Shown in pieces: positions 3,468-23,600 of a DNA stretch of 29,905 bases (positions within the stretch are counted from its first letter, which is position 1; every line of letters begins with the position of its first letter). The stretch lies in contig NW_003155238.1 of the NCBI RefSeq assembly GCF_000003605.2, positions 638,375 to 668,279 of the forward strand, in the 5' to 3' direction. The notes below the pieces were generated by a model that saw only the letters and a program-made list of their open reading frames with translations, ran no database searches and was not told the origin of the DNA. Source of the stretch: Saccoglossus kowalevskii (taxonomy: Eukaryota; Hemichordata; Enteropneusta; Harrimaniidae). The position numbers and the translations under genes are program-made.

Positions 3468-5234
3468 TCACTTAATCTTCTCGGTGGAGCCGTAGTAGAT
3501 ATATCTAGCAATTTCTCCGAATGTGTTGTCCAGCGTTTTGATGCTTTCCGCGTCGTATTCGTTGTTATGGTAACCATACCCCAGCTGTATAACGTGCATA
3601 TGTGACCAGTCGCGTCGGCAACCATTCTTCCAGAGTTTACCCATGTCCCACCAGTCTGTCCATTCTGGTCGTGTCAAACAAATCCCTTCAATGTGTATTA
3701 GGTCAATATTTTCACTTGCTATTTCATACGGCATCTCTCTAGAGTTCAAGTACATTTGTGAGCCGTCGTAGAATTCGTAGGTATCATGGTAAAGTTTCAT
3801 AAATTTCGAGTTTGGTGCTGCCAGCACGACACCATTGTTCAGGCCGTATATATCCAATCCCATGGTGCATTGCTCGCTTCGTAGGGGGTTCAAATTGTTC
3901 ACTACTATAGCGTCTGGGTTCAAATAAATCCCGCCATATTCCAGTAAAACTTGTATTCTCGCGATATCAGACCTATGGTGAATATCTTCAATCGCGTTTC
4001 CGAAAATTTCCTTTGGCTGTTCTCGGTGAACCACTCGGAGAATTGTTTTCCCGCGTGTTTCGGCCATCTCTTTTGTGATTTCCCACCACTTTCCATTCGG
4101 TTCGGGATCGCAGTGAAAAATTATACTTTCCGCGTTTTGAACCGTGATGGCGCTTTTCACGCTCAAGAAATTGTGAAACTTGAATTCTTCTTTGGTGAAC
4201 CAGACGTAGTGCACGATGTTGGGCACGATGAGAGTTCTAGTCGCATTGGGTTTAGACGGCCAATCCATAATTCGCAATTTTGGGCTTCCAAAATATGCGT
4301 TTCTTGCTAATTCCCCAAAAGTAGTATTTAAATATTGAATTTCATACTCGCTGTATTCTTTATTAAAATATTCATAATAAAGTTTAATTGCTAAATTATG
4401 TCGATGGTTCACGTGACCAAAAAATATATTTTCCGAGGTCTCGTCACCATCGATTTGGTCCCGACGACGAAATTTCTTATTTTCTATATAAACTAATTTT
4501 GAGTGTGTTTTGCATAGTTGCGCTAGCGTCATTAGGTTAACGCCAGTAGTTTCGTTATAATTTTCAAAGGTTCCCCACCATTTCTGTAGAAATTCATCGT
4601 TTTCCCGGGCCAACATTATGCCGGGATTGAGTCCCATGTTTTCTCGACCAATGACGAAGTCGTACCGACGAAGAAAGTCGAAGTTTTTTATTACAATGAC
4701 GTCACTGTCCAGATAGATCCCGCCATACTTCAGGAGAGTTGTGATTCTCGCGAGAATCGCTTGGTCTCTTGGGTGTGTTATCGTTTTCCCGAACACTTCC
4801 GATGGTGGATCGGACTCTACAATTTCGAATTCTGTTAGCTCTTTTGCTTGATCCCAATACTGGTAAGAGAATGGTCCTAAATGTTCGGAAATCCTGTCTT
4901 TGTCGGTATGAAGAAGTATTTTATCGGGTTTTATAAATCTCTTAACACTCAGCAAGCTAAGAAAATGGTGAAGTTTGAACTCCTTCTCACCGTACCAAAT
5001 ATAATGAACGACATTTGGAACCACCATAGATTCCCGGGGCTCTGCCATCGCGGCCATCTTTGAACGCCCTCGTTCCCTAATCATTTGCGCCCTCTGTAGG
5101 ATGTCTGCCATTTCGTTTTTCTGTAGAAGCTCAATAATGGCGTAGTCGATGGTAAACCAGAGTGGTACCACAATCATCAGTAAGATCACCACTGACAACA
5201 CGATACATCTCCTCCCACCACACGTTATCTTCAT
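3468..5234 (-). CDS. Double-domain GT32-like glycosyltransferase, type II membrane protein (paralogue 1)
   Basis: The protein has 588 residues. Residues 10-33 are a hydrophobic signal anchor after a short basic start, predicting a Golgi or ER type II protein with a luminal catalytic part. Two homologous domains follow. Domain 1 (about 72-325) opens with VPNVVHYIW and carries GGIYLDSD, with DXD at 176-178. Domain 2 (about 337-588) opens with VPNIVHYVW and carries RSDIAR followed by GGIYLNPD, so the DXD position reads NPD (439-441). Both end in an FGE(L/I)AR..Y(F/Y)GS signature. By family (Gly_transf_sug, GT32-like) it should transfer a sugar from a nucleotide donor using a divalent metal; donor and acceptor are unknown. 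In domain 1 the Asp of D-x-x-R is replaced (ILAR). The ATG lies 5 bases past a strong 3' splice site, and the coding sequence is uninterrupted. It is the most 3' member of the three-gene cluster. The family call is strong; the substrate is unassigned. Confidence 0.93.
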   Translation of the reverse strand: MKITCGGRRCIVLSVVILLMIVVPLWFTIDYAIIELLQKNEMADILQRAQMIRERGRSKMAAMAEPRESMVVPNVVHYIWYGEKEFKLHHFLSLLSVKRFIKPDKILLHTDKDRISEHLGPFSYQYWDQAKELTEFEIVESDPPSEVFGKTITHPRDQAILARITTLLKYGGIYLDSDVIVIKNFDFLRRYDFVIGRENMGLNPGIMLARENDEFLQKWWGTFENYNETTGVNLMTLAQLCKTHSKLVYIENKKFRRRDQIDGDETSENIFFGHVNHRHNLAIKLYYEYFNKEYSEYEIQYLNTTFGELARNAYFGSPKLRIMDWPSKPNATRTLIVPNIVHYVWFTKEEFKFHNFLSVKSAITVQNAESIIFHCDPEPNGKWWEITKEMAETRGKTILRVVHREQPKEIFGNAIEDIHHRSDIARIQVLLEYGGIYLNPDAIVVNNLNPLRSEQCTMGLDIYGLNNGVVLAAPNSKFMKLYHDTYEFYDGSQMYLNSREMPYEIASENIDLIHIEGICLTRPEWTDWWDMGKLWKNGCRRDWSHMHVIQLGYGYHNNEYDAESIKTLDNTFGEIARYIYYGSTEKIK

Positions 5235-5240
5235 CTTTCT

Positions 5241-5265
5241 CTGACCAATGAAAAAAAAGAAAGAA
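5241..5265 (-). other. 3' splice site upstream of the start codon of paralogue 1
   Basis: On the minus strand a long pyrimidine run (TTTCTTTCTTTTTTTTC) is followed by ATTGGTCAG, then AGAAAG and the ATG. This is a near-ideal acceptor and implies a 5'-untranslated intron. It also fixes the start, because no coding sequence can continue upstream in the same exon. A matching donor is proposed at 5882/5881. Confidence 0.65.
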
Positions 5266-5881
5266 ACAAATTTGCAATGATTGTTGTTTACGCATGCAAT
5301 ATGGATTCATGCTGTTTATTGGTGAATACATTGGATTATAGTTTGAGTGAAATAAACATCGTTGTTTTGCGTTACTTTATTTAATATTTGCTCGTTCAAA
5401 CGTTGAAAATGCTGATTAAATCGCACGTACGCTGATTTGTACGTACACTAACAATCATGATTGGTACACAGGCACGAGTGTTAGTGTTTTAATGAAAACT
5501 ATTTTGTGTATTGAAAAAACAATGTATGATGTCACCATGACATATTATCTGTGCCATAGGAACCCATAGTTAAAGCGTTATAATACTGACAAAATAGCTA
5601 CTATTAACTAAAATACAAACATCATTTTCTCGAAAATTGAGCTGGTGACCCCAAACATTCTTTAAGCCAATACCATTATATTGCCCGAAACTTATAAATT
5701 TATTGGAAAATGGGTAAATTCCGGGTATTTGAAATCATGAGTAGGCTTCTACCTTAAGACATGTCATTCGTTGTCGATGACGCCCTCATGGTTAACCTCG
5801 GGATGCAATAAACTAGGATATACTTATAGTATCTAGAGCGGTCAGTAAAATGTATTAATTATTGAAAATATCAACACTCAC

Positions 5882-5931
5882 CTCTGGATTACGTCAACCG
5901 TGAAAAAATGTCGTTATGTGTCCTATATATA
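5882..5931 (-). promoter_or_regulatory. Candidate promoter and 5' non-coding exon donor for paralogue 1
   Basis: On the minus strand the palindrome CCTATATATAGG (TATATATA at 5924-5931) is followed 42 bases later by CCAGAG|GTGAGT, an excellent 5' splice site whose last exon base is 5882. A start about 25-30 bases after the TATA would give a very short leader exon, spliced to the acceptor at 5241. This is an inference from motifs and spacing. Confidence 0.3.
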
Positions 5932-6539
5932 GGTTTACATATCATAGCCAGTTCACCAGGGGGTTGCTGACTTAGCTAGATCTGTTGACGTGGCGAGCAA
6001 GTCCATAAAGTGACGACTAGGACAGTGAGTGTCACATCATTGTGATTTAGTAACCTTGACACATGGGCACCACAATGAGCTCATTGAGAAGACGCCAAAT
6101 ATTACGATCTTTCCCTCCGACAGAAAAGATTCTAGCAACTTTTTTTGCGGTCAAGCACCATTATAGGCCGATGAACTGATCTTTGCCCAGTACAGATAGT
6201 GGCATGGTTTGGGTTTAAATATTCATTGGGTCATTGGGTCTAACGGGCGTTAGACTTTAAACCGTTTTTTAGACATGCGCCACCTATATGTTGTGTATGC
6301 GTGTCCGGCAACTGGTCGTTCATGGAGTTATACCAATGAACTAAAATTGTCTAAAACGTATGCATTGTCAAATACATTTCTGTTTTGCGCGCGTGTATGT
6401 TTTTAAAGTGGAAATGGCGTTTTACATTTAATCCGTGTCACAGAAATTATTGTCACCAGTGATAAGCAGGCAAACGTGGCCACACGATGAAAAACCTTCG
6501 AGCACGCCCTCTGTTGGTAATAGTGACTTTACAAGTAGA

Positions 6540-6553
6540 CCTCTAGGTGGCGC
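6540..6553 (+). promoter_or_regulatory. CTCF-like core motif
   Basis: CCTCTAGGTGGCGC fits the CTCF core consensus CCWSYAGRKGGCRS at every position. A weaker reverse-oriented relative (CGCCCTCTGTTGG) lies about 25 bases to the left. Such a match is expected by chance now and then in 30 kb, so function is unproven. Confidence 0.25.
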
Positions 6554-7521
6554 CAGCATATATATTTTAGAGGGTCACGGATTTGCCAAGGACACTATCA
6601 AACATTACACGTCGACACATGAGATACAAAGATACGACGGAACAATAAAGGTCATCAGATTATAATTTATTTTTAAAATCACTTCATCGTTTATCTCGGG
6701 TAGCAGTACTTTGTAAGATTTGTACATTCGAAACGAGATTACATCATATCATTGTACAGTAAGTTTACAAGTTAAACTGGTGCAACCATTTTACCAGTTC
6801 AAAGAACGTCTTTTCGGTCCTTCGAACAAATCCCCCCTCTTCAAACAGTATTGTAAAATACAGGCCAGTGTGAACAGATCAACTTCTGAAATTTTCTGAA
6901 GTAAGATGAAATTCCTAAAAAATTGAAAAATATATTGTCTATTTGTCTAAAAACACTTATTGACTCTTCAAAAACATTTATTTATCTAACCTGTATCAAG
7001 AATATTGAATTACGTGCACCTACTAATTAAAACATGACGTCACACTAAAAGTATTATCAACTGGGAGTGTTTTATTTGCCATATATATTTAGACAAACGC
7101 CGCTTTACGTCATGTCTTGCATCACCAAAGCGGACGCACTTAAATGACAGTTAAATGACATAAAACAAAAAACGATATTCAGTCACATTCTTGAAGCTCT
7201 ACTAAGTAGTGAAAACAATGACAATTGCGCAAACAATTTTGAATCATGACATCACTGAATATTCTGTAAGATTGAGAATAATTAAAATGTTAAAATTTCT
7301 ATTTATTTTTGTGTGTGTCACATACACACACAAAATTAAATGAAAATTTTAACAATATTGTTTCATTATTTCCCATATTGTAATAAATACATTTGAGTGA
7401 AAGTTTTAAAATGCTGCAATACATCAGATAAAAGGAAAACAAATGCCCAGTAGGTCAGGTTTTAGAAACGAATTTGAATAGTTGTTTTCTCTTGATTTAA
7501 TTCTACTTTGTACACGTCTAA

Positions 7522-7621
7522 AACATTTACAAATACTCTTGACTTGAATATGGCTATCTTTGTGCATATGTTTTGATTTGACATAATCCTAATATTCAAG
7601 TCAAAAGTATTTGTAAATGTT
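7522..7621. repeat. Inverted repeat with 30-bp arms (hairpin 1)
   Basis: The arm at 7522-7551 is the reverse complement of 7592-7621 with one mismatch. The intervening loop is 40 bases. Thirty paired bases are far above chance. It could be a small inverted-repeat element, a cruciform or a transcribed stem-loop; nothing in the sequence decides between these. Confidence 0.85.
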
Positions 7622-7654
7622 CATATACCACTCCGGACAGAATGGTATATGAAC
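7619..7654. repeat. Perfect 12-bp inverted repeat (hairpin 2) abutting hairpin 1
   Basis: GTTCATATACCA at 7619-7630 pairs perfectly with TGGTATATGAAC at 7643-7654 across a 12-base loop. It overlaps the last three bases of the larger hairpin to its left, so the two form a double stem-loop. Confidence 0.8.
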
Positions 7655-8101
7655 TTGTTATGTTACCATGGATAATAGTTTACACACGACCACTCGAATA
7701 TAACCACGCTTCATTATAACTAATGTATGTATTTATAAATATCACAAGATCCTGGCTGATAGGCCAGTTACAGGTGTCTAAATATTTCCAGCCAATTCAA
7801 AGAAGGTCATAAAAATGAGTACTACTAATATATACATTCATTGCGGTAACTCCGTTTTGATTACAGGAAGTCTTAGATCAGGACGAATGGAAGTGTCGAG
7901 TGCAGTGTGTAAATGTAACATAACGCATGAGCCCTGATAAAACAAATCCAAAGATCAAATGACAGTGGTTCTACTGTGTTATTCACAAAGTAGCAAATAC
8001 AAAAGTTGTAACAGACTTGAAAGCAACCAGGACGGAGTTACTACAACTGATGTAAGTATCTACACTTTTTCTGATACCTTAGTGACTATCTATTTGTGTT
8101 T

Positions 8102-8107
8102 TTTATT
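8102..8107 (-). terminator. Putative poly(A) signal AATAAA for paralogue 2
   Basis: TTTATT on the plus strand reads AATAAA on the minus strand, 175 bases beyond the stop codon at 8282. Called by motif and position only. Confidence 0.4.
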
Positions 8108-8281
8108 AGAATTTCTTGAATTATTGAATATCAAGAGCATATAACGTGAGAACAGTGTTGGCAAACGGAATGCTTATTACAGAAAGTTGGTGTTGTAGTT
8201 TAAAATGTATCATTTCAACATTATTTCAAATTTACCCCCTGCTCTTCGTCGTGCATTTCTACATCTGTCGTGACTATACAC

Positions 8282-10621
8282 CTAGACTATTTTCTCCTGT
8301 ACGTCATTAATTGTATTCGGCTTATCTGCCTCATCCACCATTTTCTCGTTGTCCCTGATGTCTGTATCATCGTGCGTTTTTTCTTCATCTTTTATTGGAT
8401 CGGCTTGAGCTGCTTCGTCCATTTTTTTCTCTTTATCTCTGATTTCTGCATCATCTTGTGCTAATTTCTTTTCCATCGCTATTTCTTCTTCGCCTTTCGC
8501 TTGTTCATCCTCCTCCTCGGATCTCTGCTTGGCAATCTCTGTTTCCCCTTCTCCTCGAACCTCCACATCCTCAGTTTTCTCTCCATCTACCTCGCGAATG
8601 TCTTCTTTTTCATTCTCTTCGCCTTTTCTACCCAAATCTATTTCTTGAACTACTTCGTTATTCGCATGCTTATCATGTGGATGACCCACTTCACGAATAT
8701 AATTCTCATCTTTTCTAGCTGCCATTTCTTCATCTGCCAACTTCTCTTTTTTCCCACCATCCTTTTCAAGACGATGTTCATGTCCATCTTCTTTGTAGAA
8801 TCCTTTCTCGAATTGTTCTATGTCAACGCCCTCTGTGATGATTTCCGGACTACCGAAGTACACTAGTCGCGCTATCTCTCCAAACGTTGTATCCATGTCC
8901 AATATATCTTCTGGCTCGTATGTCTTGTCGTGATAGATCCATTTAAGCTGTATCGTCAGGGAGTGAGACCAATCCCTCTTCCCGTTCTCTCTCCACAATC
9001 TAGCCATGTCGAAAAAGTCTGTCCAATCAGGCCGAGTTAGACGGATTTCTTCGACGTTAAGACTGTCTGGGTGATCAGCACCGATGTGGTAAGGTTCCAT
9101 AGCCGAGTTGAAGTGTTCTTCTGCATCATTAAAGAACTGATACGAGTCGTGATAAAATCGAAGAAATTCAGCATTCTGTTCAGATAAAATCACCCCATTA
9201 TTCAACCCATATACATCCATCCCCATGGTGAACGGGAAATGACGGATGGTGTCGAGGCTTTTCACAATTAAAGTATCCTCTTCTATGAAAATTCCGCCAT
9301 ACTTGAGCAATGCGTGTAATCGGGCAATATCGGAACGATGGTGAAGCTTCGGCAGTGCTCGGCCGAATGCCTCTGTCGGCTGTTCTTTGTACATGACGCT
9401 GAGTTTGTCACCCGCCATTTTTTTAGCCTTGTCCCACCATTTACCACGTGGTTCAGCATCCGTGTGAAACATTATTGATTCTGCTTTCTGTATGTGAAGG
9501 GCGCTCTTTATACTGAGGAAGTGGTGGAACAGAAAATCGTGATCAGAGAACCAAACGTAATGAACAATATTGGGAACAACTAAGGGTTTTGTTTCCTTGG
9601 GTGGCCAGTCTTGTTTGAATTCTGGTGCCCCATAGTAAGCATATCGAGCCAATGCACCATATGACGAATTCACGTATTTTATGTTTTGTCCTGTATTTTC
9701 ATGATAGTATAGTTCATAGTAAAGTTTAACTGCATAGTTTCCGAAGTGATCAATTTTTGCCAAGAAGATATTATTACTATAGTCGTCATTCTGAAAGTTG
9801 TCATGGCGACGAAACTTTTGCGCTTCGACATGAATAGTTTCCGGGTGTTTAGAAATAAGCCAATACAGATTATCTTCTGCAGATCTCCGATCCGAGCCGT
9901 ACTTTTCAAAGGTTTTCTCCCATTCATCCAGAAACACGGTCTTGCCTTTGGCGAGCATTACCCCTGTGTTGAGCCCGGTTTTCTCCCGACCAATCACGCA
10001 CGCGTACTTACGAAGCGGGTCGAACGAATCAATGACGATGACATCATCGTCCAAGTAGATGCCACCGTATTGTTTGAGTATTTGAATACGTGACAAATAG
10101 TGTTGCGATTTTCGATCTAGCGTCAGATTATTGATTGATTCAGTAGGGGTGAAATGTACAACCTCCAGGCCTGGAATGCTTTTGGCCTCTTTCCACATTC
10201 CGCCGCTTCCCACTCCTTCCTGAAAATCCATATTATCAGTATTGATCATTAATTGTACGTTGGTATGAAACATGATCTTTTCTGGTTTCAGAAATCTCTT
10301 AGCACTCGCTAGACTAACTAAATTGTGAAATTGAAACGGTCTTTGTCCTATCCAAATATAATGTACTATGTTAGGAACAACGTTTTCTTGATAGGGCTGC
10401 AACTCGTCAGCGAATTCACCTTTTTTGTGGTTTTCATACTGCGTCTCGCGTTCACGTCCCGCCTGCTGGAGTTGACGAGTATTGTCTCTTTGTGTCTCGC
10501 TCATTTTTTCCTTCTCAAGCTTACCGAGATGAGGAACACTTCCACTGAAAGTGAAGTACATCCCCAATGCCGCTGTTATTAGAATCAACCCCATCCATAG
10601 TCCATAACTCTGGGACGACAT
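8282..10621 (-). CDS. Double-domain GT32-like glycosyltransferase with a long charged C-terminal tail (paralogue 2)
   Basis: The protein has 779 residues. A signal anchor at about 8-26 is followed by a polar, charged stem (31-80). Domain 1 (about 82-335) starts VPNIVHYIW and has GGIYLDDD, DXD at 191-193, but YLSR in place of D-x-x-R. Domain 2 (about 349-592) starts VPNIVHYVW and has RSDIAR, but the DXD position reads EED (447-449, in GGIFIEED). The end signature FGEIARLVYFGSPE is present. Residues 600-779 are an extension absent from the paralogues, very rich in Glu, Asp, Lys and Arg. It contains a 28-residue internal duplication (DDAEIRDKEKKMDEA at 723-737, DDTDIRDNEKMVDEA at 751-765). As a type II protein the tail would be luminal. 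Catalysis probably rests on domain 1. Donor and acceptor are unknown. The ATG is 10 bases past a good 3' splice site. Confidence 0.93.
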   Translation of the reverse strand: MSSQSYGLWMGLILITAALGMYFTFSGSVPHLGKLEKEKMSETQRDNTRQLQQAGRERETQYENHKKGEFADELQPYQENVVPNIVHYIWIGQRPFQFHNLVSLASAKRFLKPEKIMFHTNVQLMINTDNMDFQEGVGSGGMWKEAKSIPGLEVVHFTPTESINNLTLDRKSQHYLSRIQILKQYGGIYLDDDVIVIDSFDPLRKYACVIGREKTGLNTGVMLAKGKTVFLDEWEKTFEKYGSDRRSAEDNLYWLISKHPETIHVEAQKFRRHDNFQNDDYSNNIFLAKIDHFGNYAVKLYYELYYHENTGQNIKYVNSSYGALARYAYYGAPEFKQDWPPKETKPLVVPNIVHYVWFSDHDFLFHHFLSIKSALHIQKAESIMFHTDAEPRGKWWDKAKKMAGDKLSVMYKEQPTEAFGRALPKLHHRSDIARLHALLKYGGIFIEEDTLIVKSLDTIRHFPFTMGMDVYGLNNGVILSEQNAEFLRFYHDSYQFFNDAEEHFNSAMEPYHIGADHPDSLNVEEIRLTRPDWTDFFDMARLWRENGKRDWSHSLTIQLKWIYHDKTYEPEDILDMDTTFGEIARLVYFGSPEIITEGVDIEQFEKGFYKEDGHEHRLEKDGGKKEKLADEEMAARKDENYIREVGHPHDKHANNEVVQEIDLGRKGEENEKEDIREVDGEKTEDVEVRGEGETEIAKQRSEEEDEQAKGEEEIAMEKKLAQDDAEIRDKEKKMDEAAQADPIKDEEKTHDDTDIRDNEKMVDEADKPNTINDVQEKIV
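8288..8455 (-). repeat. 84-bp internal duplication coding a repeated 28-residue acidic/basic segment
   Basis: In the tail of paralogue 2, residues about 721-748 and 749-776 align with each other (DDxxIRDxEK..DEA in both). The DNA period is 84 bp. It lies at the extreme 3' end of the coding sequence and looks like a relatively recent in-frame duplication inside the low-complexity tail. Confidence 0.7.
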
Positions 10622-10631
10622 GTTTGGTTAT

Positions 10632-10655
10632 CTGAGTGGAGGAAACAAATAACAG
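10632..10655 (-). other. 3' splice site upstream of the start codon of paralogue 2
   Basis: Read on the minus strand, TTATTTGTTTCCTCCACTCAG is followed by ATAACCAAAC and the ATG at 10621. It is a strong pyrimidine-rich acceptor in the same place relative to the start as in the other two paralogues. Confidence 0.65.
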
Positions 10656-11049
10656 CTGGTAAATTAAGAATACATATTTCAACAGAAATCTACACACGAT
10701 TGTTGATAACTCGTAAAATGTGATTTTAAAATAATTGATTTTCAAGAAAATTTCTAATCATACAAGTCAAAGCATGAAACAGTCCCAGTCCGTTTTCAGT
10801 GTAAGGTCATATTAGCATATAGTTCCATGACAAACATTACAAATATGACTACCCAACAGCACTCATTAAAACACGTCTATCAATGGAATAACATAATAAA
10901 AACAAGATAGTTTTAATTTTTTCTTGTAAAACTGAATTTCATAGCTCGTTATATGATTCTGTTATTGCTAGCGCTAATAAGTCTGCGTCAGATTTACTAT
11001 TGATGACATGCATAGAACAGTGGGAAACGAATTGCGACTAATGCAAACA

Positions 11050-11064
11050 GCGCCCTCTGCTGAC
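11050..11064 (-). promoter_or_regulatory. CTCF-like motif
   Basis: The minus strand reads GTCAGCAGAGGGCGC, matching the CTCF core except for its first base. It lies upstream of paralogue 2 in the opposite orientation to the motif at 6540. Motif match only. Confidence 0.22.
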
Positions 11065-11918
11065 AACTCACGTCCACACAGGCCCATGCGTCAGCTGTCG
11101 TTGTTCTGTTGTTTATTGACTATGTAAGAAGTCTAAAACAGAAGATTGGTGAGGACTCCAAGACTAGTAGCAGTCGGGACGATTCTTTTTAAAACATTGG
11201 TGTAATTTTCAATTTAAACAAATCACGGTGATTGGGGATGTCGCGCCGAATGGGGTATTTAGCGGAAATATTTCTTTAACTCACTTGAGAAGTTGAGACA
11301 GTAAAAATGTAATCTCCTCGACCGTAGCCGATTTAGAGGACTCCCTCCCGATGAGTCTGTCGTTTAGTTTTCGGGATGTTGTCACTAACTATCCTGCCAG
11401 TGAATGGCCCTACGTCTACGCGTGCCTTAAATACACTTTTGAGCTAGGATATGTGTATATTTATCCTCCCTCCCCACAATTATATCTAAACTACAGGGTA
11501 CAACTGTCCGCCGCTTATTAAAATGATGCTTTATATGTGTTACTATCAGCACCAGTATAACCATCGTGTGAACTGAGTCAACATTACTGAGTCCATAGAC
11601 GTAAGTTGGTCATAATCAGTGCTTTGATTCCAAGGAGGCGTGTACGGTGTCCGTCGCTTACGTAAATCACTGGGAGATGCAAATATAACTGGTGTTTCAA
11701 CTGCACTGATAAACTTGAATTTCGGCCATCCCCAGGGTCGTGTATCGCCACCTATGCACAACCACCCAAATTAGATGCTTAAACTTCACTACTGAACAGC
11801 GAGGCCAAAGGCAGCGACATTACCGTACATAAAGCATATTGATTGTTGGGGGGGGGGGTTCGTTAAAGTGTAGCGGCTACTATAAAAGTTAGAAATCTCA
11901 AATAAACAGTGGTCTTAC

Positions 11919-12060
11919 CTGCTGTTATAGCTAATTCTTGTCGATATGGAAATGTTTTAAAGCTTCACATCGCTAGCTACGTACTGCGTCCGCCATTTGT
12001 AACACGACAGCACGTTATGTGGCGTATAGAGTTAACTATTAACCAATCTTGAGTCCACGG
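11919..12060 (-). promoter_or_regulatory. Candidate 5' non-coding exon and promoter region of paralogue 2
   Basis: On the minus strand AACAGCAG|GTAAGA is a strong donor whose last exon base is 11919; joined to the acceptor at 10632 it would remove an intron of about 1.29 kb. Upstream in the same direction lie a GATTGGTTAA (inverted CCAAT) at about 12040 and a short upstream reading frame at 11973-11996 (ATG GCG GAC ... TAG, seven codons). No clear TATA box is seen. Exon limits are inferred. Confidence 0.3.
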
Positions 12061-13953
12061 CGTGACCTCGGTGTGTTTACTGCTTCCCACAATGTAACAA
12101 TCGAATGCAAGTTGAGGGGCCTAAAGTGCATTGAAATGCCATCGATTGTGTGTTTTTTTCCGTAAACTGGACGTCCTTGAAACGGTCTATCTTATCAAGT
12201 TACGCACTGTGTACCCTACCATGTATAGGTCAAATTGAAGGTCAAGACGATTGTTTTGTAATGAGGAAGCAACAAATATATTACTGAAATTTTTTTCCGG
12301 CAGTGATTTGATCGGGCCCGGGTACATGTATATTGAATTCGTTGTATTATGTTGAACCCGTACCGGTTCTAGCATAAGAAATATTAACACTGTCGTGCAA
12401 GTTTTGCTCATAATATAAAGATAATGTCTTCTAGAGAATACAACGTTGTTTATACAAATAAATAAATATGAAAACACTATAAAATTAATTCGGCCATTGT
12501 ACCTTTCTGTGTGGTGAACGAGGAGTAATAATATAGCGTAGCCTGCCCATAGTAGCAATAATTTAAAATTACCGTGACCACTGTCTACGTATGCAGAAAT
12601 GAACATTCAATTATTAATTATTAATGATCAATTTTGTATTAACTCAAATATTGTTTACAAATCCGTGACAACTGTGTAGAATAGTTTACGTGGAATATAC
12701 ATAAAGTGACGTTGTTTCAAGTTGACGATTTTGTAAACAAGTATGCCCACTTGTTTGCATGTTTGCGTGGAATTGCATTTGATAAAAAAAGGGCCGCCAA
12801 TCGGTCATTTTCAAACCAATCTGAAAAAAATACCTACCGGAATCGCAGAAATTCTTGAATTTGATGAATTTTTTTAGCAATAAAATGGCCGCCATTCGAC
12901 CATCTTAAATTGAACGAACGCTTGTACGTACGAACGCGTGAATCAGGAAAATGCCAACCAATTAGAGAGCACATTGCGCTTTAGAGATTACCCAAATCAT
13001 GTGGTTTGTACAAACAAATACATGTTCGACTTTTATGTATTCATTTTTCTTCTTTAATCTCCAAATTGCGGAGTAATTTAAAAGAATAGTAGTTTTTTTG
13101 TCAACAGTATATAGTCATAGTATATAATCCCCATCACCTTGAATGTCAGTGATTATATTCCTAAATAATTTACAGCAAGTTTAGCATCTCTATAAATTGT
13201 TTTTCGCCAAAAGTAAATTAAGTTGACATTCTGGTCATACATTGCAAAACGTTATTTGTTTTGTATTTATAAACTTTCATTGAAATTTGCGTTAAAATTA
13301 ACATCTTACATACCTGGTTTGTACATTACAAATTACGTTACATATAATTGTGAAGTGGGCTTGAAAACATTTTTCACAAAATATCCCCATTTTTTTATTA
13401 TGAGAGGTCAACCTATTCTGTCCAGGAAATATTTTACATATCTTTTGTATGCCATTAATTCTGGCTTTTGGTTTTTATGACTACACAAATAAATATAACT
13501 TTTTGCTACCAGAAGGGGGAAGTTGACTAAACATGTAAAATTTTCATCCCCGAAAAGGAGCAAAACGTACTTTTGGGAAAAAACAAATACAGCTGGTGTT
13601 GAAATTTTGCTCTGTTCCTTCCTCCCATAAAGGGTGTTCTGAATATGATGGGCTAAATACCATTATGTGTTCGTGCGTGCGTTAAACGTCCCCCAAGAAC
13701 AGTTCGGAATAAATAAACTCGGACTGAATGATCTTGAAATCTCAAAATAGGATCTATCGTCCTACTGACACATTTTAAGTGACCTTAATACGTATTTCTG
13801 AATAATTTAATCAATTCTCAAAATGACTCTGACATTAATGAAGCCATAAATGAGAAGGAAACAAATCTTGGACAAAATTTAAAATGAAATTAAAATATCA
13901 ATTTGATCACTCAAAAAAATGAGGCACCAGCAGACGACAGAATGAGAAACGAC

Positions 13954-13957
<4 letters not shown>

Positions 13958-13994
<37 letters not shown>
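13958..13994. repeat. (TA)n microsatellite
   Basis: An uninterrupted TA dinucleotide run of about 36 bases lies directly left of the first decayed reverse-transcriptase copy. Confidence 0.97.
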
Positions 13995-13996
<2 letters not shown>

Positions 13997-13998
13997 AA

Positions 13999-14444
13999 CA
14001 AAAACTGTTTTCTTGTCCTAAGGAAATGCGTTTGATAGTGTAGAACACGAAGGTCTACATCTATTAAAATAACTGAATTTTGGAGTTACAGGTAAGCTAT
14101 ATAACACAGAATCTTTTCAATCTAATTTAGGAGTTGAACAAGGCTGTAACCTAGGTCACACACTTTTTAACCTCCTTAAAAAGGATATCCCAGAATTAGA
14201 TAATTCAAATATATGCAACCTGCCAACATTCTGTATGCTATAGATACTGTTATCCTTTCGTAATCAGAGAGTGGCCTACAATTTAGCCTAAACCAACTCT
14301 CAACAACGCAACAATTAAACACAAAAAGGAAAAAGTATGCAGTGGTTTTTAATTGATTAAACAGACCGCAGAATAACAATATTTTTTCGTCGATAGAAAA
14401 TAAATTAACGTCACAAAAATGTAAATTAGTTAATGGAGAGTAAT
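13999..14444 (+). pseudogene. Decayed non-LTR retrotransposon reverse-transcriptase fragment, copy 1
   Basis: Read on the plus strand from 14022, the translation gives GNAFDSVEHEGLHLLK, then a stop, then LGVEQGCNLGHTLFNLL. This is the LINE reverse-transcriptase block KAFDSV...GVxQGCxLSPxLFN. After a frame change SESGLQFSLNQLSTTQQLN resembles the stretch following the YADD box. The YADD box itself is damaged: CMLY is followed by a stop and ILL, consistent with loss of about six bases. In-frame stops, internal deletions and shifts show it is dead. The exact LINE clade cannot be told. Confidence 0.8.
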
Positions 14445-14456
14445 ATATAATATATA

Positions 14457-14902
14457 CAAAAACTGTTTTCTTGTCCTAAGGAAATGCGTTTGATAGTGTA
14501 GAACACGAAGGTCTACATCTATTAAAATAACTGGATTTTGGAGTTACAGGTAAGCTATATAACACAGAATCTTTTCAATCTAATTTAGGAGTTGAACAAG
14601 GCTGTAACCTAGGTCACACACTTTTTAACCTCCTTAAAAAGGATATCCCAGAATTGGATAATTCAAATGCATGCAACCTGCCAACATTCTGTATGCTATA
14701 GATACTGTTATCCTTTCGTAATCAGAGAGTGGCCTACAATTTAGCCTAAACCAACTCTCAACAACGCAACAATTAAACACAAAAAGGAAAAAGTATGCAG
14801 TGGTTTTTAATTGATTAAACAGACCGCAGAATAACAATATTTTTTCTTCGATAGAAAATAAATTAACGTCACAAAAATGTAAATTATTTAATGGAGAGTA
14901 AT
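14457..14902 (+). pseudogene. Decayed non-LTR retrotransposon reverse-transcriptase fragment, copy 2 (tandem duplicate)
   Basis: The sequence repeats copy 1 at an offset of exactly 458 bases with only about five substitutions seen, for example CTGAATTTT versus CTGGATTTT and TCGTCG versus TCTTCG. All the stops and deletions of copy 1 are shared, so the duplication happened after the element had died. A short TA-rich spacer joins the copies. Confidence 0.85.
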
Positions 14903-15059
14903 TAATTTAATTAATCATCCAAATTAAAAATTCAAAGCAACTATATAGAAGATAAACTGTGATATAAATAAAACACAAGCAGCCAGTCGGCTGAGATAGC
15001 TCCGCTGTTAGCAATGCACATTTCAATTAAAAAACAGAAGATATCATTAAGAAAATGAA

Positions 15060-15900
15060 CAATATGTAGACTTGCTATTTTCAACAAGAAAAATATCACT
15101 TCTCACCAAAAATGACAAAAATAATCATCAAAATTAGATAATTGAAGATATCACTACGAAAGTAACAAATCTGAAAGAGGTCCACATGTAGTATCTATAT
15201 ATGTAATATAAAAGCAATCAGACTTGTGGTTTTTAACAAGAAGTCGAAAATATCACTTTTTACCAAAAATATTCATCAAAATTAGAGAATTGAAGATATC
15301 ATCACGAAATGAACAAATCTGAGAGAGGTCCACATGTAGTACCTATATATGTAATATAAAAGCAATCAGGCTTGTGGTTTTTAACAAGAAGTCGAAAATT
15401 TTTACCAAAATTTTTACCACTTTTACCAAAAATTACAAAAATATTCACTAAAATTAGAAAATTAAAGATATCATCACGAAATGAACACATCTGAAATAGG
15501 TACACACGTAGTACCTACCGGGGGTATATATGTAATATCAAAGCAATTGGACTTGCGGCTTTTAACAAGAAGTTGAAAATAACACTTTTTACCAAAAATG
15601 ACAAAAATATTCACCAAAATTAGAGAATTGAAGATATCATTACAAAATGAACAAATCTGAGAGAGGTCCACATGTAGTACCTATATATGTAATATAAAAG
15701 CAATCAGGCTTGTGGTTTTTAACAAGAAATTGAAAATATCACTTTTTACCAAAAATAACAAAAATATTCACCAAAATTAGAGAATTGAAGATAAGATCAT
15801 GAAATGAACAAATCCGAGAGAGGTCTACCCAAGGTACATATACACCAAGTATCAAAGCATTCAGGCTTGTAGTTTTCAAGAAGAAGTCGAAAAGGTAAAA
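15060..15900. repeat. Degenerate tandem repeats of about 150-172 bp, five to six copies
   Basis: The segment AAATCTGAGAGAGGTCCACATG followed by TATATATGTAATATAAAAGCAATC recurs with its GGTCC position near 15179, 15328, 15499, 15665 and 15822, i.e. spacings of about 148, 172, 166 and 157 bases. Copies diverge by substitutions and small indels. Open minus-strand frames of 65-74 codons through this region arise from the repeat and are not called as genes. Confidence 0.88.
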
Positions 15901-15978
15901 CATTGACACGGATGACGGACGCAGGACGACGGACGACAGACGACGACGGACAACGACGGACAATCACTCATATGATAA

Positions 15979-16008
15979 GCTCCGCTCGACAAAGTCGACA
16001 GCGGAGCT
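15979..16008. repeat. Terminal hairpin of the 1-kb element
   Basis: AGCTCCGCTCGAC and GTCGACAGCGGAGCT pair across a 3-base AAA loop with a 2-base bulge. The outer nine bases of the stem are the same word as the terminal repeat at 14998, so the TIR word occurs twice at this end. Confidence 0.8.
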
Positions 16009-16012
16009 AATA

Positions 16013-16980
16013 AAAAGATTACTTTCTCTTTTTGACAAAATTATTCGCTATGGCTATACCGCAGACTGCCCCATATAATGTCCATGGGTATAACTTTAAC
16101 TAGTATATGTAATTTCGCTAATTCAAGATTTCGTTAATTTAAAATAAAGTATATTCTCCCAATGAGATTGTTGGAACTTGGCTAAATTGAGATTCTGTGG
16201 ATACATGCATTGATTGAACCAAGTTTGCTAAAAATGTATTTAGCTATTTCAAAGTCTTTTACAGAATTGACGACGTTTATGGAACTAAAAGGTTAGGAAT
16301 GTGTTTGTAACACGTTAGCGGTAACTTTCACTGTACCACGTGGTTGGCGATTCCAAGTGGGGATGATTTCAGGTGGAACACGCCGTCAATGTCTGACCAT
16401 TACAATCTGGGTCGGGGCAAGAGGTCGCCAGACTGTGGGGCAACAGGTCATCAGATTATGGGACTCAACGGTGACCATAGTATACGATAGATGACGTATA
16501 ACTATAATTGTCCACGGCATGTGAAAGGTGGCTTCATCCTCTGGGGCCTAGGTGAAATGGTCTACAGGTCTATCACGGAGGTTGGGTAGGCAAAATCGAG
16601 ACATTGACACAGGTTTCGTGAATATTTTGTTGCGTGGACGGCAGCTTAACATAACAAAATTTGGACTCGTACGTAGAAATATGAAATAATCCATAACTTT
16701 GGATGAGATAGAGGAGGGGGGGGTTATTTCTCTTTATGAATAACAAAATACAATTTCATAAACATGGGGTTAAAGAGCAGAAAACTCTCCTGGTAAACAA
16801 GTTGACTTCACGATGATGCAATGTATAGTGGAAAAAAGACAAACATGTTTTCATGTACATGTGTTTACATACTCATTGAGGTCAGAGAGTCGAGCCATTC
16901 GGTGATCACGCACGTGTCACGTTTATACACGGGGCGGCTGGGACCGGGACTTTGCATGAAATCAAATCACCGAACCTCAA
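16013..16980. other. Unassigned intergenic sequence
   Basis: About 970 bp. No coding frame of note, no RNA gene and no clear repeat boundary recognised. Confidence 0.4.
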
Positions 16981-17145
16981 TTTTGTAAATGCGTTAATTA
17001 TCCAATGGGTTTTAATTTTGCTATTTTCATTAACAGGAAATATTGGCTAAAATAAACCTATGTACAATTGTAATATCGCTCCTTGTTTCATTTCCAAATG
17101 CGTAATTTAAAAGTCTCCGTGAATATGCTCGAAATAGGTAAAAAT
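16981..17145. mobile_element. Older, degraded copy of the 23601-23811 MITE-like family
   Basis: GCGTTAATTATCC-AATGGGTTTTAATTTTGC matches GGGTTAATTATTC-ACTGGGTTTTAATTTTGC of the 23601 element. Further right, GTGAATATGCTCGAAATAGG matches CTGAATATGCCTGAAATGG. Order and spacing agree. The ends are eroded, so limits are approximate. Confidence 0.55.
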
Positions 17146-17410
17146 GGTGATATTCAATCTCAACAAAAATTAATCTTACAGTATATTTTGTTTAATCATT
17201 TATACACCACTTGGGTTTCAAACATTTTAATGATCGTTGTTTCCATTTCACACAATAGCATATAGTGACAAAAAACAACACAATGCGCATTGACAAATTT
17301 AATTTTAATATCGGGTAACAATCTCAGTTCGACATAATCTTTAAAAAATCATTTTCTAACATGGACAGCAAATACATCATCCCATTCGTATAATTAACAT
17401 CAAGAATAGT

Positions 17411-17574
17411 TACTCTCAACGCAATAAAAGCATCCCTTCATCTTTATAAATATTTATAAATTACAATCTTTCAACGTTATTCAATCAGCCATTTGAAACT
17501 TCTCGTTTTAGTTTGAATTGAAATGTATAAATATTGATGAAGATGAAGGAAATGTTTTCAAAGCGTTGAGAGTA
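17411..17574. mobile_element. Putative MITE of about 164 bp with TACTCTCAACGC inverted ends
   Basis: TACTCTCAACGC at 17411-17422 is the exact reverse complement of GCGTTGAGAGTA at 17563-17574. The similarity continues inward for about 35 further bases (CTTCATCTT...AATATTTAT in both arms) at lower identity. The size and structure suit a miniature inverted-repeat element. No clear target-site duplication was found. Confidence 0.5.
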
Positions 17575-18122
17575 TGAGATCAATTAATTGATAAAACATA
17601 TTAATTAATCTTAATTATTGCTGGTAACACTCTCTTAGATTTTTACTGAAAATAAATATTTCAGTTTCCTAAAGTTATACTAAATATAAATCATTGATAC
17701 TAAAATGTTCGATCACTGTGCGGACTACCACGTCATGTACGTACATGTGTATGTAAATCGTCGTAGGTTACGTTTTTGTCATGATAGATCTGATAAGCAT
17801 TCCGACGTTGCCATGGGAAAAACAGTAGCACTGGTCGCGCCACCAGTTCAGATAACAAGTGGTACTCCTGTTTCACTGGTGAACATGAAACCTCTCCAGT
17901 AATACGGGCCTGACTAACACTACGTGTCCCGACTGGCCAGGGAATGTAAAACCTATCTCAGAACCTACGAAATATATGTTTTTTTATCTACATCGTCATC
18001 GTTCCATGCGTTGAGTAGATTGTTATGAGACCCACATAAAGCAGAAACAATATTTTCTTGGGGTGAGATATAAATAGTTGGTACTCGTGCCAGCCATAAT
18101 TGCTTGGTCGCTAAATTTGGTA
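17575..18122. other. Unassigned sequence downstream of paralogue 3
   Basis: About 550 bp before the predicted poly(A) signal of paralogue 3. A 65-codon plus-strand frame at 17705-17902 has no recognisable motif and is not called. Confidence 0.4.
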
Positions 18123-18128
18123 TTTATT
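18123..18128 (-). terminator. Putative poly(A) signal AATAAA for paralogue 3
   Basis: TTTATT on the plus strand reads AATAAA on the minus strand, about 46 bases past the stop codon at 18174. This would give a very short 3' untranslated region. Motif and position only. Confidence 0.4.
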
Positions 18129-18173
18129 ATCTACAAATACATGGTAAATTTGTCAGTATAGCTACGCCCATAG

Positions 18174-19958
18174 CTATGAATTAAACGTCAACAATGGATC
18201 GCACATTAATTCAGGCGAGCCATAGTAAATCCATCTCGCAACTTCGCCAAAAGTGTCATCGAAACATCTAATTTCCTCTGGATTATGCTCATTTCCATGG
18301 TAACTGTAAATCCAGTGAAACGCGAAAGCGTGTGACCAATCGAGTTTTCCCTCATGTCGCCAGGCTCTTCTCATGTCCCACCAGTCTGTCCAATGGGGGC
18401 GCGATATCCCAGATGTCTCAATATGGATGTGATCGGGGTGTTCGGCTGCCAGACGATACGGCTCCATCACGGAGTTCCAGTTCCATTGAGCGTCGTCGAA
18501 GAACTTGTAAGAGTTGTAGTAAATGTTCAAAAACGTCGAGTTCGGAGCCGAGAGGATAATTCCGTTGTTGAGTCCCACGATTTCCATTCCCATGGAGTAA
18601 GGGTAGTACAACAATGGCTCCATGTTTTTAACTATCATAGTGTCCGAATCAAGATATATACCACCATGCTGCAGTAAAATTTGCATACGGGAGATGTCCG
18701 ATTTATGTGGGATGTTTCCAACGCCATGACCAAAAACTTCATTGGGCTGATCACAGTGGACCACTTCAAGTATTGGACCGGCGATTCGTTTGATCTCCTC
18801 CCACCAGAACTGACCAGCTGGTTCGGCGTCGGTATGAAACAGTATCCGGTCTGCTTTCTGGATGTGAACGACGCTCTTCACTCCTAAGAAGTGGTGGTAG
18901 CGAAATTCGTGAGGCGTGAACCAGACATAGTGGATTATATTCGGTACTACTTTTTTAGCGCCGCGCGGTGGCCGCCAATCCGTTACACCGAGAGTCGGGC
19001 TGGCGTAGTAAGACAAGCGTGCCATTGCCCCAAACGATGAGCGTAGTGATTTGATCTCTTCTGGGTTGTATTCTTTCTCAACCATACCGTAATGCAGCTT
19101 TACCGCGTAGTTATCGCTAAGGTCAATTTCCCCGTGAAACAGATTTCCGTAATCTTCGGGACCCTTCCAAGCATCTCTGCGACGAAATCCGTTCTCTTCG
19201 ACGTGCACAAGTTCGGGATATTGCATGGCAACGTCGAAAAGCGCATCTTCTGGCTCAAATCGGTTGGAGTCCGGCTCGTGAGACCATTGATACCATTTTT
19301 CCAAGAACGGAGCTTTGGGTCGAGCTAAGACAACTGCGGTGCTAAGACCGTAGTCTTCTCTTCCTATCACAAACTCAAAATGACACAACAATTCGAATGA
19401 TTTCAAAACAATGACGTCAAGATCCAAATATATTCCACCGTGGTCCCGAAGCATTTCCATCATGACAGCGAGTTTCAAATAGTGTTTACTTTGGTAGTCT
19501 CGTTCCGAGCGATATTTAGGTCCATCCCAAGGCACAATTTTGAAATTGGGGATGGTCTTGGCTTCTTTCCAATACTGAACTGAATCTGCATCTGTGTGTT
19601 TTTCCATATCCCTCACGTTGGTGTGAAACCATATTTCTTTGGGGCGAATGTGGCGAAACGCCGACTTGATCGACAGCAGATGATGGAATTTAAAGGATCT
19701 CTCTTCCAACCAAATAAAGTGGACTACTTTCGGAACAACTATTGTGTCGGACTGTGGCATCACCATATCACTCAACTTGTCATCCTTTGGACGACTACGT
19801 GACAGTGCCCCGGCAACAAAATCCTTGCGCGTTTCCTCCTCTTCAAACTCCGGGGTATCCGGTTTGATCACGTGCCGAAATAGAAGTACAAAGACGAGAA
19901 TCCCCATTAGCGCAAGTACAAGGCGCATCCCCCGTACTACCAGTTTTCTGCTTGCCAT
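18174..19958 (-). CDS. Double-domain GT32-like glycosyltransferase with both DXD motifs intact (paralogue 3)
   Basis: The protein has 594 residues. The signal anchor is at about 10-30, after a basic MASRKLVVRGMR start, followed by an acidic stem. Domain 1 (about 73-322) opens VPKVVHFIW and has GGIYLDLD, DXD at 179-181; here both D and R of the upstream D-x-x-R are lost (LAVM aligned by spacing to the GG). Domain 2 (about 337-585) opens VPNIIHYVW and has KSDISR then GGIYLDSD, DXD at 437-439. It ends FGEVARWIYYGSPE. It is the only one of the three whose second domain carries both motifs, so it is the best candidate for a fully active domain 2 and perhaps the least derived. The predicted role is Golgi-lumen sugar transfer with unknown donor and acceptor. 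The ATG is 27 bases past a 3' splice site. It is the most 5' gene of the minus-strand cluster. Confidence 0.93.
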   Translation of the reverse strand: MASRKLVVRGMRLVLALMGILVFVLLFRHVIKPDTPEFEEEETRKDFVAGALSRSRPKDDKLSDMVMPQSDTIVVPKVVHFIWLEERSFKFHHLLSIKSAFRHIRPKEIWFHTNVRDMEKHTDADSVQYWKEAKTIPNFKIVPWDGPKYRSERDYQSKHYLKLAVMMEMLRDHGGIYLDLDVIVLKSFELLCHFEFVIGREDYGLSTAVVLARPKAPFLEKWYQWSHEPDSNRFEPEDALFDVAMQYPELVHVEENGFRRRDAWKGPEDYGNLFHGEIDLSDNYAVKLHYGMVEKEYNPEEIKSLRSSFGAMARLSYYASPTLGVTDWRPPRGAKKVVPNIIHYVWFTPHEFRYHHFLGVKSVVHIQKADRILFHTDAEPAGQFWWEEIKRIAGPILEVVHCDQPNEVFGHGVGNIPHKSDISRMQILLQHGGIYLDSDTMIVKNMEPLLYYPYSMGMEIVGLNNGIILSAPNSTFLNIYYNSYKFFDDAQWNWNSVMEPYRLAAEHPDHIHIETSGISRPHWTDWWDMRRAWRHEGKLDWSHAFAFHWIYSYHGNEHNPEEIRCFDDTFGEVARWIYYGSPELMCDPLLTFNS

Positions 19959-21866: not shown

Positions 21867-21937
21867 CTTTGAAGGTCAGCACGAGGTTAGTTAAAAACGA
21901 ACGATTTGGAAATATGAGCCACATCATTGTTGGCGCT
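21867..21937 (+). repeat. Inverted 70-bp repeat, left copy
   Basis: CTTTGAAGGTCAGCACGAGG through AACATCATTGTTGGCGCT-like sequence matches the reverse complement of 24811-24882 with about 90 % identity by eye. Key shared blocks are GAAGGTCAGCACGAGGTTAG, GATTTGGAAATATGAGCCA and TGGCGCT. The similarity fades outside both limits. Confidence 0.8.
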
Positions 21938-22159
21938 GTTCTTAAAATCTGGTGACACGAGTCTAGCATCTAAATGAATAAGACTAACATTACTGAACAT
22001 ATTTGACAATGCATTTAAAAAAATCAAATTTAGATCCACAAATGTATCTTGGCAAATTTGGCACAGAGCAACTATACAAAGTTAAACAGCGATATTTGAC
22101 TGTAAACAATATGATGGGCCTGCTGTTCAACCTTAAAATGTTAGTACTGTATGTATATC

Positions 22160-23545
22160 ACTCATGAGGCATACGAGTGTCATACACAATATGACCAGAA
22201 ACCAGTACCACCACATGAAGCATAGGAGGGTCAAATGCCAGGTGACCAGACACTATCACATGAAGAGTAGGAGGGTCATGCACCAGGTGACCAGACACCA
22301 CAACAGGATGTGTGGGAGGGTCACACACCAGGTAACCATATACCACACATAAAGCATGGGAGGGTCCTACAACAGGTGATCAGACACGATCACATGAAGA
22401 GTAAGAGGGTCATGCACCAGATGACCAGATACAACAAGATGCATGGGAGGGTCATATGCCAGATGACCAGATACCACCACAGGATGTGTGGGAGGGTCAC
22501 ACACCAGGTGACCAGATACAACAAGATGCATGGGAGGGTCACACACCAGGTGACCAGATACAACAAGATGCATGGGAGGGTCACACACCAGGTGACCAGA
22601 TACAACAAGATGCATGGGAGGGTCACACACCAGGTGACCAGATACCACCACATGAAGCATAGGAAGGTCGTACGCCAGGTGACCAGATACCACACATAAC
22701 GCAAAGGAGAGTCATACACCAGGTGACCAGATACCACCACATGAAGCATAGTAGAATCAGGTGACCAGATATGACAGGATGGTCACACACCAGGTGACCA
22801 GATGACACACATAAAGCATAGGAGGGTCACACACCAAGTGACCAGATACCACACATAAAGCATAGGAGGGTCACACACCAGGTGACCAGATACCACACAT
22901 AATGCATAGGAGGGTCACACACCAGGTGACCAGATACCACCACATGAAACAAAGGAGGGTCACACACCAGGTGACCAGACACCACAACAGGATGCATGGT
23001 AGGGTCACATACCAGGTGACCAGACACCACAACAGGATGCATGGTAGGGTCACATACCAGGTGACCAGACACCACAACAGGATGCATGGTAGGGTCACAT
23101 ACCAGGTGACCAGACACCACAACAGGATGCATGGTAGGGTCCTCTGCCAGGTGACCAGACACCACAACAGGATGCATGGTAGGGTCCTCCGCCAGGTGAC
23201 CAGACACCACAACAGGATGCATGGAAGGGTCCTCCGCCAGGTGACCAGACACCACAACAGGATGCATGGTAGGGTCACATACCAGGTGACCAGACACCAC
23301 AACAGGATGCATGGTAGGGTCACATACCAGGTGACCAGACACCACAACAGGATGCATGGTAGGGTCACATACCAGGTGACCAGACACCACAACAGGATGC
23401 ATGGTAGGGTCCTCTGCCAGGTGACCAGATACCACAACAGGACACATGGTAGGGTCCCTCCGCCAGGTGACCAGACACCACAACAGGATGCATGGTAGGG
23501 TCCTCCGCCAGGTGACCAGACACCACAACAGGATGCATGGTAGGC
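22160..23545. repeat. 42-45-bp minisatellite, about 31 units
   Basis: The shared core is CCAGGTGACCAGA(C/T)ACCAC followed by CAGGATGCATGG and AGGGTC. Units are 42 bp around 22490-22640 and 45 bp from about 22970. The left part is irregular, with units ending CACATGAAGCATAGGAGGGTC. Because the units are multiples of three and lack stops in several frames, long open frames appear on both strands (for example 22827-23558 minus and 22902-23498 plus). These are by-products: they are pure repeat, overlap each other and have no gene structure. Confidence 0.97.
23001..23540. repeat. 270-bp second-order repeat inside the minisatellite, two copies
   Basis: Units carry either AGGGTCACATACC or AGGGTCCTC(T/C)GCC. 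From 23001 the order is three of the first kind (23001, 23046, 23091) then three of the second (23136, 23181, 23226). The same six-unit order restarts at 23271 (23271, 23316, 23361, then 23406, 23451, 23497). The array therefore grew by copying six-unit blocks. Confidence 0.9.
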
Positions 23546-23600
23546 TACCTCTTACCATGAGTTGTTAGCCAGCAAAGGGCAATTGTCTGTAAATACAATG

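What the first reader, a model, noticed from the sequence alone, without database searches (positions are those of the whole stretch)
3468..19958. Complementary loss of catalytic motifs between the two domains of all three tandem glycosyltransferases
By eye alignment, domain 1 of every paralogue has an intact DXD (DSD, DDD, DLD) but lacks the Asp of the D-x-x-R motif eight or more residues before the GG (ILAR, YLSR, LAVM). Domain 2 of every paralogue keeps D-x-x-R (SDIAR, SDIAR, SDISR), but its DXD reads NPD, EED and DSD. In this superfamily D-x-x-R contacts the nucleotide sugar and DXD binds the metal. So the two halves may have split roles (one catalytic, one binding or scaffolding), as in other bi-domain glycosyltransferases. 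This is inference built on direct motif reading.
Basis: partly seen in the sequence, partly recalled or inferred. Interest (0 to 1): 0.72.

Follow-up and report, generated by a model that had tools for sequence, protein, structure and literature searches.

The report
Twin-domain glycosyltransferases with one dead half
Three neighbouring genes, probably from an invertebrate animal, each encode a membrane-anchored sugar-adding enzyme built from two copies of the same domain; the front copy has lost key active-site residues in all three, and only one of the six copies looks fully working, which resembles other animal enzymes that keep a non-catalytic twin domain.

Summary
The motif reading is accurate, but "complementary loss in all three" is not. 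Each gene (A 3468-5234, B 8282-10621, C 18174-19958, minus strand) encodes a hydrophobic N-terminal anchor plus two Gly_transf_sug (PF04488) domains. Domain 1 always lacks the Asp of D-x-x-R (I, Y, L; C also lacks the Arg). Both are missing from both domains of A and B (Lys in every domain 1, Gln in A2 and B2, at the His) and kept only in C2. So losses are shared and graded, not complementary: one of six domains, C2, has the whole set. A tree places the domain-1 loss before the gene duplications. Domain 1 is predicted still to fold as GT-A. Best reading: domain 1 is a non-catalytic pseudo-glycosyltransferase; C works through domain 2; A and B are altered enzymes or pseudoenzyme partners. Precedents exist (EXT2, COSMC). 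Eukaryotic orthologues could not be searched.

The parts
3468..5234 (-). Gene A: 588 aa, N-terminal hydrophobic anchor + two PF04488 domains, uninterrupted ORF
5148..5204 (-). A: predicted N-terminal membrane anchor (aa 11-29, mean hydropathy 2.89)
4230..5024 (-). A domain 1: D-x-x-R Asp replaced by Ile160 (nt 4755-4757), DXD intact (Asp176, Asp178), C-terminal His replaced by Lys284 (nt 4383-4385)
   Evidence: PF04488 35.4 bits; fold pLDDT 89.9, pTM 0.88
3477..4229 (-). A domain 2: SDIAR kept (Asp423, Arg426), DXD is NPD (Asn439, nt 3918-3920), C-terminal His replaced by Gln550 (nt 3585-3587)
   Evidence: PF04488 35.9 bits
8282..10621 (-). Gene B: 779 aa, anchor + two PF04488 domains + long charged C-terminal tail, uninterrupted ORF
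10547..10603 (-). B: predicted N-terminal membrane anchor (aa 7-25, mean hydropathy 1.71)
9581..10381 (-). B domain 1: D-x-x-R Asp replaced by Tyr175 (nt 10097-10099), DXD intact (Asp191, Asp193), C-terminal His replaced by Lys299 (nt 9725-9727)
   Evidence: PF04488 31.3 bits
8819..9580 (-). B domain 2: SDIAR kept (Asp431, Arg434), DXD is EED (Glu447, nt 9281-9283), C-terminal His replaced by Gln558 (nt 8948-8950)
   Evidence: PF04488 32.0 bits
8282..8818 (-). B: charged C-terminal tail, not present in A and C
18174..19958 (-). Gene C: 594 aa, anchor + two PF04488 domains, uninterrupted ORF
19866..19922 (-). C: predicted N-terminal membrane anchor (aa 13-31, mean hydropathy 2.62)
18960..19739 (-). 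C domain 1: D-x-x-R Asp replaced by Leu163 (nt 19470-19472) and Arg by Met166 (nt 19461-19463), DXD intact (Asp179, Asp181), C-terminal His replaced by Lys287 (nt 19098-19100)
   Evidence: PF04488 25.9 bits
18198..18953 (-). C domain 2: the only domain of the six with Asp421, Arg424, Asp437, Asp439, Trp492 and His548 all present
   Evidence: PF04488 42.0 bits

Best explanation
A, B and C are tandem paralogues of a type II membrane (probably Golgi) protein made by duplication of one GT32-like (Gly_transf_sug) domain, followed by duplication of the whole gene. Shown by sequence: domain 1 of each lacks the D-x-x-R Asp and the C-terminal His; domain 2 of C keeps all six active-site positions examined; domain 2 of A and B lacks the first DXD Asp, the Trp and the His. 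Predicted: domain 1 keeps a GT-A fold. Inferred: domain 1 is a non-catalytic pseudo-glycosyltransferase domain that supports folding, acceptor docking or pairing; C transfers a sugar through domain 2; A and B are either altered enzymes or pseudoenzyme partners, possibly of C. The Lys that replaces the His in all three domain 1s may fill the metal site.
Against: Loss of the C-His is compensated in other GT-A families by water or another residue, and GT14 dispenses with the metal (PMC7185993, passages), so missing motifs do not prove inactivity. Three relatives also lack the D-x-x-R Asp (G, G, N) and may be active. The Trp is less secure than the others: over all 87 relatives it is W in 63, a gap in 23 and L in 1. 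C2 is not perfect outside the six positions: it keeps 19 of 24 conserved columns and lacks a Phe found in 83 of 84 relatives, which domain 1 may keep one column away. Conserved columns outside the active site are also lost in the five other domains (60 of 90 cells kept, against 14 of 30 active-site cells, counted). Full-length C has pTM 0.62, so no domain interface is predicted. No eukaryotic orthologue, expression or activity data.
Confidence: 0.6

Rival explanations
1. Complementary split as proposed by the reader: in each protein domain 1 supplies the metal (DXD) site and domain 2 the sugar-contact (D-x-x-R) site, together or as catalytic and binding halves.
For: Motif strings in A and B fit.
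Against: C2 has both motifs. The C-terminal His is lost from all three domain 1s. His and Trp are missing from both domains of A and B. The domain-1 loss predates the A2/B2 losses on the tree.
Confidence: 0.06
2. Both domains are active but with altered chemistry: domain 1 is a metal-independent transferase in which Lys (for His) replaces the metal, as basic residues do in GT14; EED and NPD sites in B2 and A2 still work.
For: Lys is invariant in the three domain 1s and both DXD Asp are kept; domain-1-specific invariant positions. GT14 uses basic side chains in place of metal (PMC7185993, passages).
Against: The D-x-x-R Asp, whose counterpart contacts sugar hydroxyls in the Och1 model (PMC12312940, passages), is Ile, Tyr or Leu, and C1 also lacks the Arg. 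In GT14 the DXD is lost, here it is kept.
Confidence: 0.18
3. Domain 1 is simply decaying: a neutral leftover of the domain duplication kept only because it is covalently attached.
For: Domain 1 pairs are less alike (38-44% against 49-51% for domain 2) and the domain-1 stem branch is longer (0.74 against 0.36).
Against: 69 of 259 columns are invariant in domain 1 although synonymous sites are saturated or undefined for most pairs; GT-A fold predicted with high confidence.
Confidence: 0.13

Closest known systems
GT32 enzymes such as yeast Och1 (PDB 9N3S)
   Same: D-x-x-R then DxD with the same spacing (D171, R174, D187, D189 in Och1; D421, R424, D437, D439 in C2), a conserved late His (H463) and a GT-A fold (PMC12312940, passages)
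   Different: One GT domain (recalled, as is its membrane anchor); here two tandem domains, five of six with incomplete active-site sets. The sequence-profile match to 9n3s_A is weak (E 0.043)
EXT1-EXT2 heparan sulfate polymerase
   Same: Two glycosyltransferase domains behind a membrane anchor, one of them (EXT2 GlcA-T) judged inactive, with Asn at two Asp positions (PMC9675754, passages)
   Different: An N-terminal GT-B fold domain and a C-terminal GT-A domain, not a tandem duplicate of one family
COSMC (C1GALT1C1)
   Same: Paralogue that lost the catalytic motifs and serves as scaffold and chaperone for an active paralogue (PMC7185993, passages)
   Different: GT31; a separate protein, not a fused second domain
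Prokaryotic and viral Gly_transf_sug proteins (from loci L001-L159)
   Same: Same domain; the best matches to C2 are 33-39% identical over the best segment (six top rows)
   Different: 0 of 166 matching ORFs carry two copies, while the same search finds both in A, B and C; ten longer ones have GT2 or methyltransferase partners or none
Bi-domain GT-A proteins LARGE1, K4CP, LH3, COLGALT1
   Same: Among the listed Foldseek matches of the full-length C model; that LH3 and COLGALT1 have a non-catalytic lobe is recalled, not from a call
   Different: Low TM-scores (0.17-0.26), so only a loose resemblance; other families

Membership tests
PF04488 Gly_transf_sug | Score above Pfam's gathering cut-off of 23 bits | tested here: met
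   A1 35.4, B1 31.3, C1 25.9, C2 42.0, A2 35.9, B2 32.0 bits
GT32-like active enzyme | D-x-x-R, DxD and C-terminal His all present, domain C2 | tested here: met
   Asp421, Arg424, Asp437, Asp439, His548
GT32-like active enzyme | D-x-x-R, DxD and C-terminal His all present, domains A1, B1, C1, A2, B2 | tested here: not met
   A1 IRDD-K, B1 YRDD-K, C1 LMDD-K, A2 DRNDMQ, B2 DREDEQ in the order D, R, D, D, W, H
GT32-like active enzyme | Sugar transfer with retention | not testable with these tools
   Needs an assay
CAZy GT32 | CAZy assignment | not testable with these tools
   CAZy is not held; only Pfam, profile and fold matches were made
GT44 TcdA/TcdB catalytic domain (PF12919) | Score above Pfam's cut-off of 23.6 bits | tested here: not met
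   Best 22.5 bits (C), best stretch 414-441, the shared D-x-x-R to DxD segment; domains alone 15.6 or less
Caps_synth (PF05704) | Score above Pfam's cut-off of 24.5 bits | tested here: not met
   Best 17.1 bits (A)
GT-A fold | GT-A Rossmann-like fold in domain 1 and domain 2 | tested here: met
Type II Golgi glycosyltransferase | Single N-terminal hydrophobic anchor | tested here: met
   Hydropathy of A, B and C; not a topology predictor
Type II Golgi glycosyltransferase | Golgi location | not testable with these tools
   Needs localisation
Pseudo-glycosyltransferase (EXT2, COSMC kind) | Loss of family-conserved active-site residues with fold kept | tested here: met
   Residues: domain 1 of A, B and C. 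Fold: predicted for A1 alone and for C1 within C
Pseudo-glycosyltransferase (EXT2, COSMC kind) | Measured lack of activity | not testable with these tools
   Needs an assay

The most novel reading that the evidence does not exclude
A lineage-specific family of tandem GT32-like proteins in which domain 1 became a stable pseudo-enzyme on its stem: loss of the sugar-contacting Asp together with replacement of the metal-binding His by an invariant Lys that fills the metal site. It now docks the acceptor or a partner, and A and B (with eroded second domains as well) act as pseudoenzyme subunits of C.
Probability: 0.22. Interest if true: 0.55.

Novelty: new variant of a known kind. Interest (0 to 1): 0.38.

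Why it matters
Pseudo-glycosyltransferase domains are easy to miss because they keep the fold and may keep the DXD, as domain 1 does here. Three paralogues side by side give a graded series (complete C2, eroded A2 and B2, and three domain 1s that lost the same residues), so it can be tested which residues a GT32-type domain can lose, whether a Lys can stand in for metal, and whether inactive copies become partners of the active one. The lesson for motif reading is that DXD alone is a poor sign of activity; D-x-x-R and the C-terminal His must be read with it.

Tried and rejected
Complementary loss was rejected because C2 is complete and because His and Trp are missing on both sides in A and B. 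A shifted Asp in domain 1 was rejected: spacing to GG is ungapped in all six domains and the helices coincide in the model of C. A relic fourth copy in the window: no tblastn match outside the three genes better than E 0.6, apart from one of E 3e-4 on the opposite strand inside gene B. Filing under the TcdA/TcdB or Caps_synth families was rejected: below cut-off. NCBIfam gave one match of E 0.32 far under its cut-off; Rfam at gathering scores and ARAGORN gave nothing. A phage-record search with protein C gave no match. A viral-contig search with domain 1 of A alone confirmed no relative. Sequence search of the PDB with protein C gave only a match of E 0.76.

Papers: ten searches were made. Searches matched nothing; one listed nine papers, mostly on validamycin-type and related bacterial pathways; two listed papers on other subjects, as far as titles and abstract starts show. 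I read passages of three papers (PMC12312940, PMC9675754, PMC7185993) and no paper whole. I make no claim about what is in print on such proteins in animals.

Whether active-site columns are lost more than other conserved columns was only counted by hand (14 of 30 active-site cells and 60 of 90 others kept in the five incomplete domains); no test was run and I do not lean on it. dN/dS was not usable because dS is saturated or undefined for most pairs. The order of losses was read from the tree by eye; no ancestral reconstruction was run.

Species identity is not determined; 'invertebrate animal' is a guess from gene and repeat structure.
Full report
What is there. The window looks eukaryotic (long AT-rich spacers, satellites; no tRNA or Rfam match). 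It holds three uninterrupted genes on the minus strand: A 3468-5234 (588 aa), B 8282-10621 (779 aa) and C 18174-19958 (594 aa). Each has one N-terminal hydrophobic segment and two stretches matching Pfam PF04488, Gly_transf_sug. Tested one by one, all six domains pass the PF04488 cut-off of 23 bits, with domain 1 scores of 35.4, 31.3 and 25.9 for A, B and C and domain 2 scores of 35.9, 32.0 and 42.0. They do not reach the cut-offs of the TcdA/TcdB or Caps_synth families. No relic fourth copy was seen.

Checking the motifs. The D-x-x-R Asp is Ile160, Tyr175 and Leu163 in domain 1 of A, B and C; C1 also has Met for the Arg. Domain 2 has SDIAR, SDIAR and SDISR. EED is a mild change; an acidic first residue occurs in other GT-A enzymes (recalled: EDD in GnT-I).

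Baseline from relatives. In these, 166 ORFs matched the six-domain profile; 110 had E below 1e-12 and enough coverage, 87 after redundancy removal, 44 from genomes and 43 viral. Among the 87: D-x-x-R Asp 84, Arg 87, both DXD Asp 87, C-terminal His 84 of 84 with a residue there (3 gaps, in ORFs that run off the end of the locus). The set D, R, D, D, H is complete in 81 of 87; the six others are those three and three with G, G or N for the Asp. One of the two search patterns demanded a DxD-like string; the 19 relatives carrying the other pattern all have the complete set, 10 of them without the DxD pattern. A Trp is invariant in the 45 closer relatives (45 of 45); over all 87 it is W in 63, a gap in 23 and L in 1, so it is a weaker marker.

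Result for the six window domains, in the order D, R, D, D, W, H: A1 IRDD-K, B1 YRDD-K, C1 LMDD-K, A2 DRNDMQ, B2 DREDEQ, C2 DRDDWH. Only C2 is complete. The His and Trp are missing from five domains, that is from both domains of A and of B. This is graded, shared loss, not complementary loss. Against too neat a picture: C2 keeps 19 of 24 columns conserved in the closer relatives, the other five domains 14 or 15; C2 lacks a Phe found in 83 of 84 relatives, and domain 1 has a Phe one column away that may be its counterpart.

Meaning of the positions. In the Och1 structure (a GT32 enzyme), conserved D171, R174, D187-x-D189 and H463 are placed for donor binding, and the modelled sugar hydroxyls contact D171, R174 and D187, with Q263 (PMC12312940, passages read). 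The spacing D-R-D-D is the same as in C2. A survey of GT-A enzymes names a C-terminal His 'C-His', a metal ligand in a subset of families, lost in several clades with compensation by water or another residue; GT14 has replaced metal with basic side chains; COSMC lost its motifs and is a scaffold and chaperone (PMC7185993, passages read). That our His is this C-His is inferred from its place in the alignment and in a late strand of the model. Domain 1 of all three has Lys there.

History. In a maximum-likelihood tree of 41 rows (six domains and the 35 closest relatives) the domain 1s form a clade (100/99), the domain 2s form a clade (91/83, below the starred level), A2 and B2 are sisters (98/83), and all six are together (100/100). 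So the domain was duplicated first and the gene later. Read by eye, the Asp loss and the His-to-Lys change fall most simply on the domain-1 stem, and His-to-Gln on the A2/B2 stem; the two DXD changes (N and E) could be one or two events. The domain-1 losses are thus older than those of A2 and B2, and C shows that they need not go together.

Architecture elsewhere. None of the 166 matching ORFs carries two copies of this domain over the same profile positions, while the same search finds both copies in A, B and C; ORFs cut by locus ends could hide a second copy. Of ten longer ORFs examined, seven have a GT2 match (one below cut-off), three a methyltransferase match (one below cut-off), six TPR matches (one above cut-off), and none a second Gly_transf_sug stretch. 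The tandem pair is thus particular to the window within what could be searched. Eukaryotes were not searchable, so it may be common in animals.

Judgement. The most likely reading is a family of bi-domain, membrane-anchored GT32-like proteins with a pseudo-glycosyltransferase domain 1, an active domain 2 in C, and eroded domain 2s in A and B, which may be altered enzymes or partners. The inactive-domain idea has good precedent: EXT2's GlcA-T domain, with Asn in place of two Asp, is judged catalytically inactive (PMC9675754, passages).

Noticed in passing
window 21868-21940 and 24808-24880: A 73-nt inverted repeat, 93% complementary, brackets a 45-bp tandem-repeat array (22201-23544); looks like a non-autonomous transposable element with a satellite core. 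No clear target-site duplication was seen by eye.
   Followed up: partly
window 2-2440: 53-bp satellite, 45.8 copies, also reported as a 426-bp unit.
   Followed up: no
window 22310-23558: Several overlapping ORFs of up to 243 aa on both strands look like an artefact of the 45-bp (15-codon) repeat unit.
   Followed up: partly
window 13984-14902: 458-bp direct duplication, 98% matches, next to a TA run; then repeats with periods of 148-338 bp at 15097-15893.
   Followed up: no
window 8282-8818: Gene B alone carries a charged, Glu/Lys/Asp-rich C-terminal tail of about 180 aa.
   Followed up: no
L089, L096, L101: Three prokaryotic relatives carry G, G and N for the D-x-x-R Asp while keeping R, D, D and H.
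   Followed up: no
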